Positions 17,566-23,385 of a stretch of DNA of 64,000 bases are shown here, one piece after another. Both the position numbers and the translations under genes were made by a program. The stretch is from an uncultured Gemmataceae bacterium (GTDB taxonomy: Bacteria > Planctomycetota > Planctomycetia > Gemmatales > Gemmataceae). Location: positions 62,001-126,000 of the forward strand of contig CALDUY010000002.1 of NCBI GenBank assembly GCA_937923405.1, read 5' to 3'. Numbering within the stretch: the stretch's first letter is position 1; each line of letters opens with the position of its first letter. The notes under the pieces are model-generated. The model worked only from the letters and a program-made list of their open reading frames with translations. It was not told the origin of the DNA and did not search any database.

Positions 17566-18420
17566 TCAAACCTTCTGCAACACCACGCGGAACCGAAACG
17601 GCGACTGCCTGTTGCCTAGAACCACCGTGTTTTCTCCCTCGATCAGCCGCGCTTCCATAATGCCACTGTGGCCGCCGATGACTCGTTCGTTCACGATTGT
17701 GCCTAAATGGCTACCACGATCACGCACCACAAAGCGATCTTCGCCAATGCGGTCGATCAGCATGTGATTGCGCGAGATGTGGAACGGTCGTTTGTCGATC
17801 AGCCACAAATCGTTTAGATCGAGCGAGTCGGACTCGTGAGCTTCACTGGCGCGACCGACGCGAAAGGGAAAGTTCTCGATCAGCACGCCATCGGGCCGCA
17901 GAATGCCGCTGCCCTCGGTTGGTGGCGAGAACAACCGCACCTGGTACTTGGTCTTAAGTCGTTCGGAGGTTGGCGGATCCGAAGCCGGTGGATCGGAGGC
18001 TGATTGGGCCAAATGACTGGCTCGGGACTCTAGCTCGCGTAGCCGTTCAAAGATCGTTCGCAAATAGCTGAGACATCGCTGCGGCTGGGCGAGCAACACC
18101 TCGGAAAATTCTTCGCTGGTCAGTCGCGAGACCTGTAGATCGGTGATGGCTCGGGCCGAATTCCGCCGCGGGCGATCGTCGATCAAGCCCATCTCCCCAA
18201 AAACCCCGCCCGGACCAAACGTGCCGATGACTTGCGGTCCTGTCGGCGTTTGGCGGACGATTTCGACCCTACCTTTCTCGATCAGATAGGCATGGGTGCT
18301 GGGATCCCCTTCCTGGAATAAATACTCGCCGGCACGGAATGACAGAAGGTTCATACATCGCCTTTTGGATTCGACTGGAGCGGGCGAGCTGCTGGGAAAG
18401 TCGTCGCCGTTGCCTCTCAT
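17566..18420 (-). CDS. Cyclic-nucleotide-binding / FHA domain protein
   Basis: 284 aa from the ATG at 18420 (GGGGAGG about 6 nt upstream, better than the Met nine codons earlier). Residues about 25-140 form a CRP/cAMP-type binding domain (LFQEGDPSTHAYLIEKGRVEI, FGEMGLIDDRPR, SARAITD). A Ser/Pro linker follows. Residues about 175-284 form an FHA domain with FRVGRASE, HISRNH and a NxxxLGTIVNERV-like core, which binds phosphothreonine peptides. No effector or DNA-binding domain is present, so it may be an adaptor linking a nucleotide signal to Ser/Thr kinase output. Confidence 0.87.
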   Translation of the reverse strand: MRGNGDDFPSSSPAPVESKRRCMNLLSFRAGEYLFQEGDPSTHAYLIEKGRVEIVRQTPTGPQVIGTFGPGGVFGEMGLIDDRPRRNSARAITDLQVSRLTSEEFSEVLLAQPQRCLSYLRTIFERLRELESRASHLAQSASDPPASDPPTSERLKTKYQVRLFSPPTEGSGILRPDGVLIENFPFRVGRASEAHESDSLDLNDLWLIDKRPFHISRNHMLIDRIGEDRFVVRDRGSHLGTIVNERVIGGHSGIMEARLIEGENTVVLGNRQSPFRFRVVLQKV

Positions 18421-18601
18421 CGTAATCCTCCCCTTGGAGGCGATCAATCAAGAATCCGGCCTGCCAACGACTCGCTTAGCTCTGCGCTGACTACTTTCTG
18501 GCGAATCAACTTCTCCATAAGCTCTATCTACTGTGAATCGAGTGGCAACGCTTCACGCTGGCTGTGCCAATCTAACCCTGGTTCCGTTTGGGAGATGATT
18601 G

Positions 18602-19331: not shown

Positions 19332-20759
19332 ATGACGGCCAGGCCGGTTCACTGGCATGAGGGGATGTTTCTTCGGCCGCATCATTTTCAGGCCAATCAG
19401 CGGTATTTCTGCAAGGAGCTGGCTCGGGCCACTCGCTGGAACCAGCACCACGACTGGGGGCTACGGTCGATTTCACTGGATCTCGACGCTTTGGCCAATC
19501 ATCGCTTTGTCGTTCGCTCCCTACGCGCGCGTCTGCGCGATGGCACCCTGATTTCACTACCCGAGGATGGCGACGTACCGGTTCTCGATCTGAAACCACA
19601 TCTGGAACGGCAGTCGTCACTGACAGTCTATCTGGCCTTACCGCTGGTGCATCTGGGACGCTCGAATGTCTCCGAAGAGCGGCTCGACGCTGTTCGGTAT
19701 CGTCTGGATACTCAAGAGTTGGAAGACGAGAACACCGGAGTCAATCCGCAGCTGATCCAGGTGCGCTTGCTGAATTTACGCCTGTTGCTATCGACTCAGG
19801 ATCAAGCCGGATATGATGTGCTGCCCTTGGGGCGGATCGAAAAATCGATGCGGGCCGATGGCTTGCCTCGCCTGGATGAATCGTACATTCCACCCGTGCT
19901 GGCCGTGGATGCCTGGACGCCGCTCCAACACGGGCTGTTGCAGAATGTTCACGATCGCATCGGCAAAAAGCTTGATCTGCTCTGCGAGCAGCTGCTGTCA
20001 CGCAATATCGACTTCGATAGTCAGTCGCAGGGGGAACGGCTGTTGTTCGAGCAAACCCGAGTGCTGAATGAAGCGGTTGCCACCTTAGGAATTCTCTCCT
20101 ATGCAGAGGGAATTCATCCACTACAGGCTTACCTCGAACTTTGTCGTCTGGTCGGGGCGCTGGCGATCTTTGGGGAGTCGCGGCGAACGCCAGTTTTGCC
20201 CGCCTACGATCACGACGATTTGGGAGGCTGTTTCTACGCGGTTAAGCATCATCTCGACGCCCTCCTCGACGCCTTTGTGGAGCCAGCGTATAAGGAACGG
20301 CCCTTCGTTGGCGCAGGGTTACGCATGCAAGTGGCGTTGGAATCGCTCTGGTTGGAACCGGGCTGGAAACTGTTTATCGGTGTGGATAGTCCCTTGGAAA
20401 CTGAGGACGTAGTGCGTCTGCTGACCAAGCCAGGCGGACTGGATATGAAGGTTGGTTCTTCGGATCGCGTCGATCAGCTATTCCGACTCGGTCAGGCCGG
20501 GTTGAAGTTTACGCACACGCCCCAGCGCCCTCCGGTCCTGCCCCAACGTTCTGGCCTGATCTATTTTCAGGTCAGCGGCGAATCGCAACAAGCAGAATGG
20601 CTCCAGGTGCAAAAATCCCTGAGCCTGGCCGTGCGTTTGAACGAAACGCGGATCGCCGGCAAAATTCAGGATCAGCGACGCTTAACGATCAACACTGGCG
20701 GCGGGCAGATGACGACGCTTCAATTTACGCTGTTCGCCGTGCCTGATCTCAGTGAGTAA
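19332..20759 (+). CDS. tssK: Type VI secretion baseplate subunit TssK
   Basis: 475 aa, the normal TssK length. The N-terminal family signature VHWHEGMFLRPHHFQ (residues 6-20) is clear, and similarity in style continues through the shoulder and C-terminal head (LPLGRIEKS, FIPPVL-like SYIPPVLAV, LEPGWKLFIGV). In known systems TssK trimers join the TssFG wedges to the membrane complex TssJLM. Here no tssB, C, F, G, E, H, J, L, M, hcp or vgrG lies in the window. First gene of a tight operon: 5 nt to the next gene, then 26 nt to the MinD-like gene. Confidence 0.88.
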   Translation: MTARPVHWHEGMFLRPHHFQANQRYFCKELARATRWNQHHDWGLRSISLDLDALANHRFVVRSLRARLRDGTLISLPEDGDVPVLDLKPHLERQSSLTVYLALPLVHLGRSNVSEERLDAVRYRLDTQELEDENTGVNPQLIQVRLLNLRLLLSTQDQAGYDVLPLGRIEKSMRADGLPRLDESYIPPVLAVDAWTPLQHGLLQNVHDRIGKKLDLLCEQLLSRNIDFDSQSQGERLLFEQTRVLNEAVATLGILSYAEGIHPLQAYLELCRLVGALAIFGESRRTPVLPAYDHDDLGGCFYAVKHHLDALLDAFVEPAYKERPFVGAGLRMQVALESLWLEPGWKLFIGVDSPLETEDVVRLLTKPGGLDMKVGSSDRVDQLFRLGQAGLKFTHTPQRPPVLPQRSGLIYFQVSGESQQAEWLQVQKSLSLAVRLNETRIAGKIQDQRRLTINTGGGQMTTLQFTLFAVPDLSE

Positions 20760-20764
20760 GTCCT

Positions 20765-22591
20765 ATGTCGTCGCATCTGGTCTTACTGGAACTAATTGGA
20801 CAGGCACTGTTGCCGATGATCGCCGAGTCAGAAGCCGTTTTTGATCGCAGTCGGCTTGTTCGAGACGTTTGGGGCAACTGGGCCAAAATCTGCGATCCCG
20901 CCACACGCCAAGCGCATCTCCATGCTTTGGCCACCCTTCCGATCAACGAACTTCGTGAGCAGATCCACGAGATCGTTCGTCGCCTACTGCCCGATCAAGC
21001 CGGTCCCGAGAGCGCGGCGATGACACGCTATCTGACCGCCCTGCCTCTGTTGCTGCATCGTCTAGAGCCGCGAGGCATCGAACAGGCCGACGACCTGCTA
21101 CGTCGGCTACCACCGCGGATCCCCAACTATCTACCTGGAGATCGGGTGCCAGCCTTGGCGGACTACGAACTCGTCGAATTGATGCGGATCTCGCCTCATG
21201 CCGAAGTCTGGACTGCGCGCAATCACGAGATTCCCGAGCGTCCTTATCCCCTGATAGTGCTGTTCGATCAGGCGGAAGAAGCACGACGGGTGCTCGCCTG
21301 GCATCGCAACCAAATGGACACGCCGGGACTACTACCCGTTGAGGATTCCTTTCTGAACGCGCCAACGCCTGGGCTGCGTTTCGCCTCGGCAGGAGCGCCG
21401 AGCTTCGAGATGCGCTCGCACTTGTTTCGCGCGGTGGTTCAGACGGTCGCGACCCTACATAGTCGACAACCGCCAGCTGCCGTCGGGGCGATTCTGCAGA
21501 CCGACGTGTTCCTGCGCGAGGGGCAGGCAGCGCTTTTGGTACTCGATCCTCCCAGCGATTCCTCCCCGCGCGAGGACATGCCGTATCTGGGCCGCCTAGG
21601 CTTGCAACTACTCACCTCCCCAGAAAGCGAGTTACTCGATCTGTTAACTTCTTGTCAAGCGGCCAATCCTCAGGAGCGGCCCGCACAGGCCAACGAATTG
21701 CTGGCACGACTTCCTCTCGAAACCGTGCCGACGCCACGCCTGGAGCCGGTTGCCCCTCGACCGCGAACCCGACGAACCGGCGAAGTTTGGAAACTGTTGG
21801 ACACTCTGCAACACACTCAGCCGGAACGTCCCAAACTACTAACTAACGCCATCGGCATGCGCTTCGTCTTGATCCCGGAAGGCAAGTTCCTAATGGGATC
21901 GCCGAAAGACGAACTGGGGCGTCGCGACAACGAAGGGCCGCAACACGATGTTGTCCTGACCCGAGCATTCTATTTGGCCGTCACGCCGACCACCCAGGAA
22001 CAGTACGAGCGCGTCATGGGCATCAATCCCTCGCGGTTTCAGGGAGCAGCGGGCGGTGGCCCCGATCACCCCGTCGAGTGTATCTCCTGGCACGACGCGG
22101 TCGCCTTCTGTGCCAAGCTGAGTGAACTGCCGACCGAGGTGGAACGCGGCCACGTCTATCGGCTGCCCACTGAGGCGGAATGGGAATACGCTTGTCGGGC
22201 TGGGTCGCATACTCCGTTTCACACCGGGCCGAGTTTGTCTCCTCGCGATGCCCGCATTGATGGGGGAAATCCCTATGGCAGTGGGCCGAGCCTGCTCAGT
22301 CCGCCACACACCGGCCGAGTGGCCAGCTACCCGGCAAATCTGTTTGGCCTGCACGACATGCACGGCAATGTTTGGGAATGGTGCAGCGATTGGTATGATG
22401 CCAGCTACTATCAGCATTCGCCGCGTCACGATCCGCCAGGTCCGGAGTCTGGCGTTTATCGCGTATTGCGCGGCGGTTCGTGGCGCAACCAGGCCAGCAC
22501 CTGTCGCTCGGCCTATCGCAATGCCCTGCCGCCCAATCAACATCAGCCGTACATCGGTTGTCGAGTAGTGCTAATTGTTAGCTCAGAATAA
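20765..22591 (+). CDS. Degenerate kinase-like / SUMF1 (FGE-like) fusion protein
   Basis: 608 aa. An N-terminal helical region (about 1-120) resembles the one preceding planctomycete kinase-SUMF1 proteins. Residues about 130-320 look like a collapsed kinase domain: it opens with YELVELMRISPHAEVWTARN in place of a glycine loop and ends with NPQERPAQANELLARL, as kinase C-lobes do. There is no VAxK lysine, HRD or DFG, and the domain is much shorter than 260 aa. Residues about 360-608 are a SUMF1 domain (GMRFVLIPEGKFLMGSP, RLPTEAEWEYACRAG, NVWEWCSDW, RGGSW, CRSAYR). With one candidate Cys at the site, true formylglycine-generating activity is doubtful. Likely a scaffold acting with TssK. Confidence 0.83.
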   Translation: MSSHLVLLELIGQALLPMIAESEAVFDRSRLVRDVWGNWAKICDPATRQAHLHALATLPINELREQIHEIVRRLLPDQAGPESAAMTRYLTALPLLLHRLEPRGIEQADDLLRRLPPRIPNYLPGDRVPALADYELVELMRISPHAEVWTARNHEIPERPYPLIVLFDQAEEARRVLAWHRNQMDTPGLLPVEDSFLNAPTPGLRFASAGAPSFEMRSHLFRAVVQTVATLHSRQPPAAVGAILQTDVFLREGQAALLVLDPPSDSSPREDMPYLGRLGLQLLTSPESELLDLLTSCQAANPQERPAQANELLARLPLETVPTPRLEPVAPRPRTRRTGEVWKLLDTLQHTQPERPKLLTNAIGMRFVLIPEGKFLMGSPKDELGRRDNEGPQHDVVLTRAFYLAVTPTTQEQYERVMGINPSRFQGAAGGGPDHPVECISWHDAVAFCAKLSELPTEVERGHVYRLPTEAEWEYACRAGSHTPFHTGPSLSPRDARIDGGNPYGSGPSLLSPPHTGRVASYPANLFGLHDMHGNVWEWCSDWYDASYYQHSPRHDPPGPESGVYRVLRGGSWRNQASTCRSAYRNALPPNQHQPYIGCRVVLIVSSE

Positions 22592-22617
22592 GCCTTCCGG
22601 ACGTCGCGGATAGAGGT

Positions 22618-23385
22618 ATGGGAAAAATTCTCTCGGTACATTCGTTTCGTGGCGGAACCGGCAAGTCGAACCTGACAGCCAACCTCGCCGCAGCGCTGGC
22701 TTTGACCAGCCAAACCGGGCTACGCATTGGCATCGTCGATACCGACATTCAATCGCCCGGCATCCATCTTCTTTTCCAACTCACCGAGGCGAACTTCAAC
22801 CGAGCGTTGAACGATTATCTCTGGAGCCAATGCGCCATCGAGGACACCGCCTATGAGGTCACGCCTCCTCAACTGCGTGAGCGTGCCAATACTTTATATC
22901 TGATTCCATCGAGCATGAAAGCCGGCGAAATCGCTCGGGTGATTCGTGAAGGATATGACGTCAACCGCCTCACAGATGGCTTTCAAGATATAATAGATAT
23001 TTTACATCTTGACTATCTTTTAATCGATACGCATCCGGGCTTGAACGAGGAGACGCTACTCGCGTTGGCGATCTCCGACATGCTGATTTTGCTGTTACGG
23101 CCGGATCGCCAGGACTTCCAGGGCACCGCCGTCACCGTCGAGGTCGCTCGCAAACTTGGCGTGCCAGAATTGCTGCTCGTGATTAACAAGACTCTGCCGA
23201 CGATCGACCACGACGCTTTACGACAGCGTGTCGAAGACACCTACCTCGCCCCCGTCGCGGCAATGTTACCCTTGAGCCAGGAAATGCTCCAACTCGCTTC
23301 GGGAGGCCTGTTTCTTTTGCACTACCCCGAGCATCCGATGTCCGAGTCCATCTTGCAGCTGGCCCGACGTGTGCAAAACTCTTAA
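22618..23385 (+). CDS. MinD/ParA-family P-loop ATPase
   Basis: 255 aa. A deviant Walker A (FRGGTGKSNL, with the signature Lys replaced by Arg at its first position) begins near residue 10. A switch I Asp (IVDTDIQSPG) and Walker B hydrophobic-Asp (YLLIDTHPG) follow. Such ATPases dimerise on ATP and position cellular cargo (plasmids, septum, flagella, secretion machinery). No ParB/MinE partner is adjacent. Co-transcription with TssK suggests placing an injection-type baseplate, an inference only. The last residues do not form a clear amphipathic membrane helix. Confidence 0.87.
   Translation: MGKILSVHSFRGGTGKSNLTANLAAALALTSQTGLRIGIVDTDIQSPGIHLLFQLTEANFNRALNDYLWSQCAIEDTAYEVTPPQLRERANTLYLIPSSMKAGEIARVIREGYDVNRLTDGFQDIIDILHLDYLLIDTHPGLNEETLLALAISDMLILLLRPDRQDFQGTAVTVEVARKLGVPELLLVINKTLPTIDHDALRQRVEDTYLAPVAAMLPLSQEMLQLASGGLFLLHYPEHPMSESILQLARRVQNS

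What the first reader, a model, noticed from the sequence alone, without database searches (positions are those of the whole stretch)
19332..23385. TssK, pseudokinase-SUMF1 and MinD/ParA ATPase in one operon with no other type VI genes
Seen: three genes with 5- and 26-nt gaps, TssK with a clear family signature, and no sheath, tube, wedge or membrane-complex gene anywhere in 64 kb. Known: TssK is a baseplate trimer and MinD/ParA proteins position cargo. Inference: the trio may be a minimal or dispersed injection-type apparatus whose baseplate is placed by an ATPase, with a kinase-derived scaffold. A standalone TssK in a planctomycete is unusual.
Basis: partly seen in the sequence, partly recalled or inferred. 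Interest (0 to 1): 0.78.

Follow-up and report, generated by a model that had tools for sequence, protein, structure and literature searches.

The report
Scattered type VI secretion baseplate operon
The gene is a genuine part of a bacterial toxin-injection machine, but it is not a stand-alone device: the rest of the machine lies in at least five other places in the same genome. The two genes beside it look like an extra control module that some of its relatives also attach to this machine.

Summary
19332-20759 is a bona fide TssK (E 1e-81 to 1e-85; fold matches solved TssK). 20765-22591 is a dead Ser/Thr kinase fused to an FGE/SUMF1-like domain. 22618-23385 is a MinD/ParA ATPase. Gaps are 5 and 26 nt. 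TssK is not an orphan. The same assembly holds tssE-F, tssL-M', hcp-tagJ-tssC-B-A, tssG-clpV and vgrG at five other loci. So this is an ordinary-kind type VI system with dispersed genes, which is common in this class. Trio order is not conserved: in 33 of 43 TssK loci the neighbour is tssL, usually with tssM'. What survives is smaller. The ParA is a distinct ortholog group. All seven other Gemmataceae genomes that carry it also have tssK. In the six whose neighbourhood I read, it follows a SUMF1 gene and receiver genes. In one, that set is fused into hcp-tssE-F-G; in four it lies beside a giant gene that neighbours tssM' elsewhere. A SUMF1-(receiver)-ParA accessory module for T6SS control or positioning in Gemmataceae is the best reading; its function is inferred. 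Outside that family the ParA sits with FHA and glutaminase genes and does not track T6SS.

The parts
19332..20759 (+). tssK, type VI secretion baseplate subunit, 475 aa
   Evidence: PF05936 2.8e-81, TIGR03353 8.5e-85; solved TssK 5y0e E 7e-28; model vs 5y0e Foldseek E 1.3e-33 and TssK C-domain 5m2y E 9e-6; only TssK in the genome
20765..22591 (+). N-domain + pseudokinase + FGE/SUMF1-like protein, 608 aa, no predicted TM
   Evidence: PF03781 4e-54; alignment with kinase-FGE paralogs; hydropathy scan
21137..21739 (+). degenerate Ser/Thr kinase region (about residues 125-325): Gly loop, VHRDLK and DFG motifs of the paralogs all lost
   Evidence: columns 240-520; paralogs such as L101 carry Pkinase PF00069 2.7e-26
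21863..22570 (+). FGE-sulfatase/SUMF1-like domain (residues 367-602); one of the two active-site Cys positions of true FGE is Asn
   Evidence: RGGSYLCHDSYC of bacterial FGE aligned with RGGSWRNQASTC
22618..23385 (+). MinD/ParA-type ATPase, 255 aa, one-copy ortholog group in this class
   Evidence: PF10609 3.6e-16; 1hyq MinD E 2.4e-14; orthologs 53-62% identical in 33 of 249 genomes including this one, next best 38%
22648..22668 (+). deviant Walker A RGGTGKS with Arg at the ParA/MinD signature-lysine position
   Evidence: sequence; S[FY]RGGTGKS in all 31 family rows

Best explanation
The operon carries the baseplate gene tssK of a largely complete type VI secretion system whose genes are scattered over at least six loci of this Gemmataceae genome, followed by a two-gene accessory module. 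TssK should act as in other T6SSs: it trimerises and joins TssF/TssG wedges to the TssL/TssM inner-membrane complex (established knowledge of the family; partners shown present here, interaction not shown). The accessory proteins most likely work in the cytoplasm as a post-translational control unit. The SUMF1-like pseudokinase would be a non-catalytic sensor or scaffold, and the MinD/ParA ATPase an ATP-dependent dimeric switch that decides where or whether the baseplate is assembled. In relatives, receiver-domain proteins lie between the two, which points to a phospho-signal input. Shown: gene identities, presence of the T6SS genes in the genome, loss of catalytic motifs, recurrence of SUMF1-ParA at T6SS loci. 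Inferred: the regulatory or positioning role.
For: T6SS genes in the same assembly: TssC C25:20231 E 2e-134; hcp, tagJ, tssB, tssA beside it; TssF C2:584079 E 2e-220 with tssE; tssL and tssM' C1:68027-70241; TssG C26 E 4.5e-105 with clpV; VgrG C3 E 1.5e-80. TssK, TssC and TssF occur in 27, 26 and 26 of the same 59 genomes. Dispersed tssK is common: only 13 of 36 TssK genes lie within 30 kb of a TssC or TssF gene (contig breaks inflate this). ParA module: G204 has hcp-tssE-tssF-tssG-SUMF1-receiver-HisKA/receiver-ParA as one tightly spaced or overlapping operon. Four others (three of genus g17, one of g32) have SUMF1-double receiver-ParA divergent from a giant gene that lies next to tssM' elsewhere. 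All 8 Gemmataceae genomes with this ParA have TssK. These ParAs form one branch with 100/99 support. Precedents: TssK complex formation is the control point of post-translational T6SS regulation (PMC10433429); a kinase-Fha axis positions T6SS in Acidovorax citrulli (PMC12607579).
Against: No interaction or localisation data. SUMF1 and ParA are not beside tssK in any other locus examined. 19 of 27 TssK-positive Gemmataceae genomes in the class sample lack this ParA, so it is dispensable for T6SS. Outside Gemmataceae the ParA sits in FHA-ParA-glutaminase (12 of 12 read) and 11 of 25 such genomes have no TssK, so the family is not T6SS-specific. Orthology of the SUMF1 partners is not secure: unlinked FGE domains score nearly as high. 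tssJ and PAAR were not searched for.
Confidence: 0.6

Rival explanations
1. The SUMF1-pseudokinase and ParA genes serve an unrelated signalling task and stand behind tssK by chance of gene dispersal; only tssK belongs to the T6SS.
For: The trio order is unique to this genome among the loci read. ParA is in FHA-ParA-glutaminase operons in other families with no tie to T6SS. T6SS genes here also sit beside unrelated genes, such as tssL directly after alaS.
Against: Two further T6SS settings of SUMF1-ParA in Gemmataceae, one inside a tssE-F-G operon; 8 of 8 ParA-positive Gemmataceae have TssK.
Confidence: 0.33
2. One reading: a minimal or novel injection apparatus built from TssK, a kinase-derived scaffold and an ATPase, without a classical T6SS.
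For: No other T6SS gene in the 64-kb window.
Against: Sheath, tube, spike, wedge, membrane-complex and ClpV genes are all in the same assembly; TssK, TssC and TssF presence nearly coincides across genomes.
Confidence: 0.02
3. The T6SS is a decayed relic: genes dispersed because the machine is no longer used, with tssK surviving in a signalling operon.
For: Genes at six loci; the kinase domain of the middle protein has lost its catalytic motifs.
Against: All matches are open frames with no internal stops and strong near-full-length scores; dispersal is seen in many relatives with intact cores.
Confidence: 0.05

Closest known systems
Type VI secretion system (T6SS), TssK baseplate subunit (PF05936/TIGR03353; solved 5y0e, 5m30, 6giy)
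   Same: Full-length sequence and fold match; TssE, F, G, L, M', A, B, C, Hcp, VgrG, ClpV and TagJ genes in the same assembly.
   Different: Genes at six or more loci instead of one cluster; TssM is about 520 aa, ends after its third TM helix, and the PF06761 C-terminal region scores above its cut-off in none of 59 genomes.
PpkA-Fha1-PppA threonine phosphorylation pathway with TagQRST (P. aeruginosa H1-T6SS); TssW-PpkA-Fha axis (Acidovorax citrulli)
   Same: Kinase-type and FHA-type regulators that control TssK/baseplate assembly or T6SS position (PMC10433429, PMC12607579). TagR also carries an FGE-like domain (own knowledge, not tested).
   Different: Here the kinase is catalytically dead, fused to the SUMF1 domain, without predicted TM segment, and paired with a MinD/ParA ATPase, which I do not know from T6SS loci.
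MinD/ParA positioning ATPases (MinD, FlhG, CpaE/TadZ, ParC)
   Same: ParA/MinD fold with Walker A, A' and B motifs; receiver-domain partners in relatives resemble the receiver-plus-ATPase logic of CpaE/TadZ (own knowledge).
   Different: Arg replaces the signature lysine in the whole family; receivers are separate proteins; cargo unknown.
Planctomycete N-domain + Ser/Thr kinase + FGE-sulfatase paralogs
   Same: Same N-terminal domain and domain order.
   Different: Most paralogs keep HRDLK and DFG; this one has lost both and lies in a tssK operon.

Membership tests
TssK (PF05936/TIGR03353) | Full-length match above curated cut-off | tested here: met
   273.9 bits vs 23.4; 285.4 vs 100
TssK (PF05936/TIGR03353) | N-terminal and C-terminal domains of solved TssK | tested here: met
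   Foldseek to 5y0e E 1.3e-33, C-domain 5m2y E 9e-6
Type VI secretion system | TssB/TssC sheath and Hcp tube genes | tested here: met
   C25 locus
Type VI secretion system | Baseplate TssE, TssF, TssG, TssK and VgrG spike | tested here: met
Type VI secretion system | TssL and TssM of the membrane complex | tested here: met
   tssL and a short TssM with an IcmF_N-type domain at C1:68027-70241; the C-terminal part (PF06761) is not found
Type VI secretion system | TssJ lipoprotein and PAAR tip | not tested
Type VI secretion system | Core genes clustered in one locus | tested here: not met
   six loci on five contigs; clustering is usual but not required (split loci: PMC2660368)
Type VI secretion system | Contact-dependent effector injection | not testable with these tools
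   needs a bench assay
Formylglycine-generating enzyme (FGE) | Two active-site Cys in RGGS(Y/W)xCxxxxC | tested here: not met
   first Cys is Asn (RGGSWRNQASTC) against 6muj/2q17; a SUMF1-like fold, not an FGE
Ser/Thr protein kinase (PpkA-like) | Gly loop, HRD and DFG motifs | tested here: not met
   all lost in alignment with active paralogs; no Pkinase hit
ParA/MinD ATPase | Deviant Walker A with signature lysine | tested here: inconclusive
   RGGTGKS: P-loop intact, signature Lys replaced by Arg in 31 of 31

The most novel reading that the evidence does not exclude
Gemmataceae use a dedicated MinD/ParA ATPase, coupled through a SUMF1-like pseudokinase or double-receiver protein, to place or license T6SS baseplates: a Par/Min-type spatial regulator of a type VI system.
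Probability: 0.25. Interest if true: 0.72.

Novelty: new variant of a known kind. Interest (0 to 1): 0.4.

Why it matters
It closes the question of an orphan TssK: the gene belongs to a scattered T6SS, so cluster-based T6SS finders will miss or mis-call these systems in Planctomycetes. It also names a testable accessory module (SUMF1-like protein plus ParA, with receivers in relatives). If confirmed, that module would bring Par/Min-type positioning to T6SS assembly.

Tried and rejected
Minimal injection apparatus: rejected, sheath, tube, spike, wedge and membrane genes found elsewhere. Conserved tssK-SUMF1-ParA trio: rejected, none in the other TssK loci read. ParA as a T6SS-specific family: rejected outside Gemmataceae (FHA-ParA-glutaminase; 11 of 25 without TssK). 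Raw ParA x TssK association over 249 genomes (odds ratio 3.3, Fisher p 0.002) is not corrected for relatedness and is driven by Gemmataceae, so I do not lean on it. SUMF1 orthology by score gap: inconclusive. Fold search with the model of the short TssM gave no PDB match below E 0.1, so its identity rests on PF14331 in its homologs and on gene order. Literature searches for ParA/MinD in T6SS, planctomycete T6SS subtypes or TssM lacking the C-terminal part gave no direct precedent in the held library. Five other calls failed on coordinates and were redone.

Full report
Observation. The 475-aa product is TssK by two curated models over nearly its full length (PF05936 E 2.8e-81; TIGR03353 E 8.5e-85), by sequence match to solved TssK (5y0e E 7e-28) and by fold (model pLDDT 84; Foldseek to 5y0e E 1.3e-33). 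The 608-aa product has an FGE/SUMF1-like domain at 367-602. Its first 345 residues align with planctomycete proteins that carry an N-terminal domain plus an active Ser/Thr kinase. In the window protein the Gly loop, the VHRDLK catalytic loop and the DFG motif are gone, so 'pseudokinase' is right. The FGE domain lacks one of the two catalytic Cys positions and is unlikely to be an FGE enzyme. The 255-aa product is a MinD/ParA ATPase.

The rest of the machine. Genome-wide searches of the window's own assembly (5.78 Mb, 56 contigs, 93% complete) find one TssK, TssC on C25 in hcp-tagJ-tssC-tssB-tssA, TssF on C2 half a megabase away, preceded by tssE, TssL and a short TssM on C1 directly after alaS, TssG on C26 next to a ClpV-like ATPase, and VgrG on C3. 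TssK, TssC and TssF occur in 27, 26 and 26 of 59 relatives, nearly the same genomes. So TssK is part of a normal-kind but scattered T6SS. Scattering is frequent in the class: only 13 of 36 TssK genes lie within 30 kb of a TssC or TssF gene. Several separations are on long contigs, for example 470 kb in G047, although contig breaks inflate the count. Split T6SS loci and a planctomycete T6SS (Rhodopirellula baltica) were already reported in 2009 (PMC2660368).

Conservation of the trio. Among 43 TssK loci read, 33 have tssL nearby, usually followed by the short tssM; none but the window has this SUMF1 or ParA protein next to tssK (further loci). The trio as such is not conserved.

The ParA family. 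A class-wide search shows a sharp ortholog group: 33 of 249 genomes including this one, one copy each, 53-62% identical, next best 38%. Two contexts exist. In all 12 loci read from other families the order is FHA-ParA-glutaminase. In Gemmataceae, six of six other loci read have SUMF1-receiver-ParA. In G204 these genes close an operon that begins hcp-tssE-tssF-tssG, with overlapping or nearly abutting ORFs. In four genomes (three of genus g17 and one of g32) they diverge from a giant gene of about 1600-1740 codons whose relatives lie beside tssM' in other genomes. The window is a third arrangement, behind tssK and without the receiver. The Gemmataceae ParAs form one branch with 100/99 support. 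All eight Gemmataceae genomes with this ParA have TssK; outside the family 14 of 25 do. Most TssK-positive Gemmataceae (19 of 27) lack it, so it is an optional accessory.

Mechanism. TssK complex formation is the step at which known post-translational regulators act (PMC10433429), and kinase/FHA modules can set T6SS position (PMC12607579). By analogy, the best reading is a cytoplasmic control unit: a SUMF1-like pseudokinase as sensor or scaffold and a MinD/ParA dimerising ATPase as spatial or on/off switch, with receiver proteins as the input in relatives. The regulatory step is inference; nothing here shows binding or localisation. The main rival, chance neighbours, keeps about one third of the weight because the adjacency to tssK itself is unique and the ParA family has a non-T6SS context elsewhere.

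Verdict. Observation confirmed; 'standalone/minimal apparatus' refuted; 'dispersed' correct; ATPase link plausible and now testable. The side finding that TssM in this class ends after its third membrane helix (PF06761 above its cut-off in none of 59 genomes, including those with T6SS) may deserve its own look.

Noticed in passing
L165:13679-15247 (G000:C1:68679-70247) and homologs in 30 of 59 genomes: Planctomycete TssM is about 500-560 aa: three TM helices and an IcmF_N-type domain (PF14331), ending right after TM3. The C-terminal TssM region (PF06761) is above its cut-off in none of 59 genomes, so the envelope-spanning part of this T6SS must be replaced or missing.
   Followed up: partly
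L067:13543-18645, L061, L065, L069, L172 and others: A giant, single-TM protein of about 1600-1740 aa with weak caspase-like and vWA matches lies beside tssM', tssK or the SUMF1-ParA module in many planctomycete genomes; candidate envelope partner of the short TssM.
   Followed up: partly
window 22648-22668 and all ParA orthologs: The ParA family carries Arg in place of the signature lysine of the deviant Walker A motif (S[FY]RGGTGKS in 31 of 31).
   Followed up: no
L176-L187: Conserved FHA-ParA-glutaminase operon in non-Gemmataceae members of the class, 12 of 12 loci read; function unknown to me.
   Followed up: no
L168:6404-8263 (G000:C26): An intact Ser/Thr kinase (PF00069 7e-32) with the same N-terminal domain as the window's pseudokinase protein, convergent to tssG-clpV; possible PpkA-like regulator.
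   Followed up: no
window 17566-18447 (-): cNMP-binding plus FHA protein about 0.9 kb upstream of tssK on the opposite strand, with an HdeD-like gene between; FHA proteins regulate T6SS elsewhere, but no conserved link to tssK was seen.
   Followed up: no
L165:13020-13027 (G000:C1): tssL starts within 10 nt of the alaS stop codon, an odd housekeeping-T6SS gene pairing.
   Followed up: no
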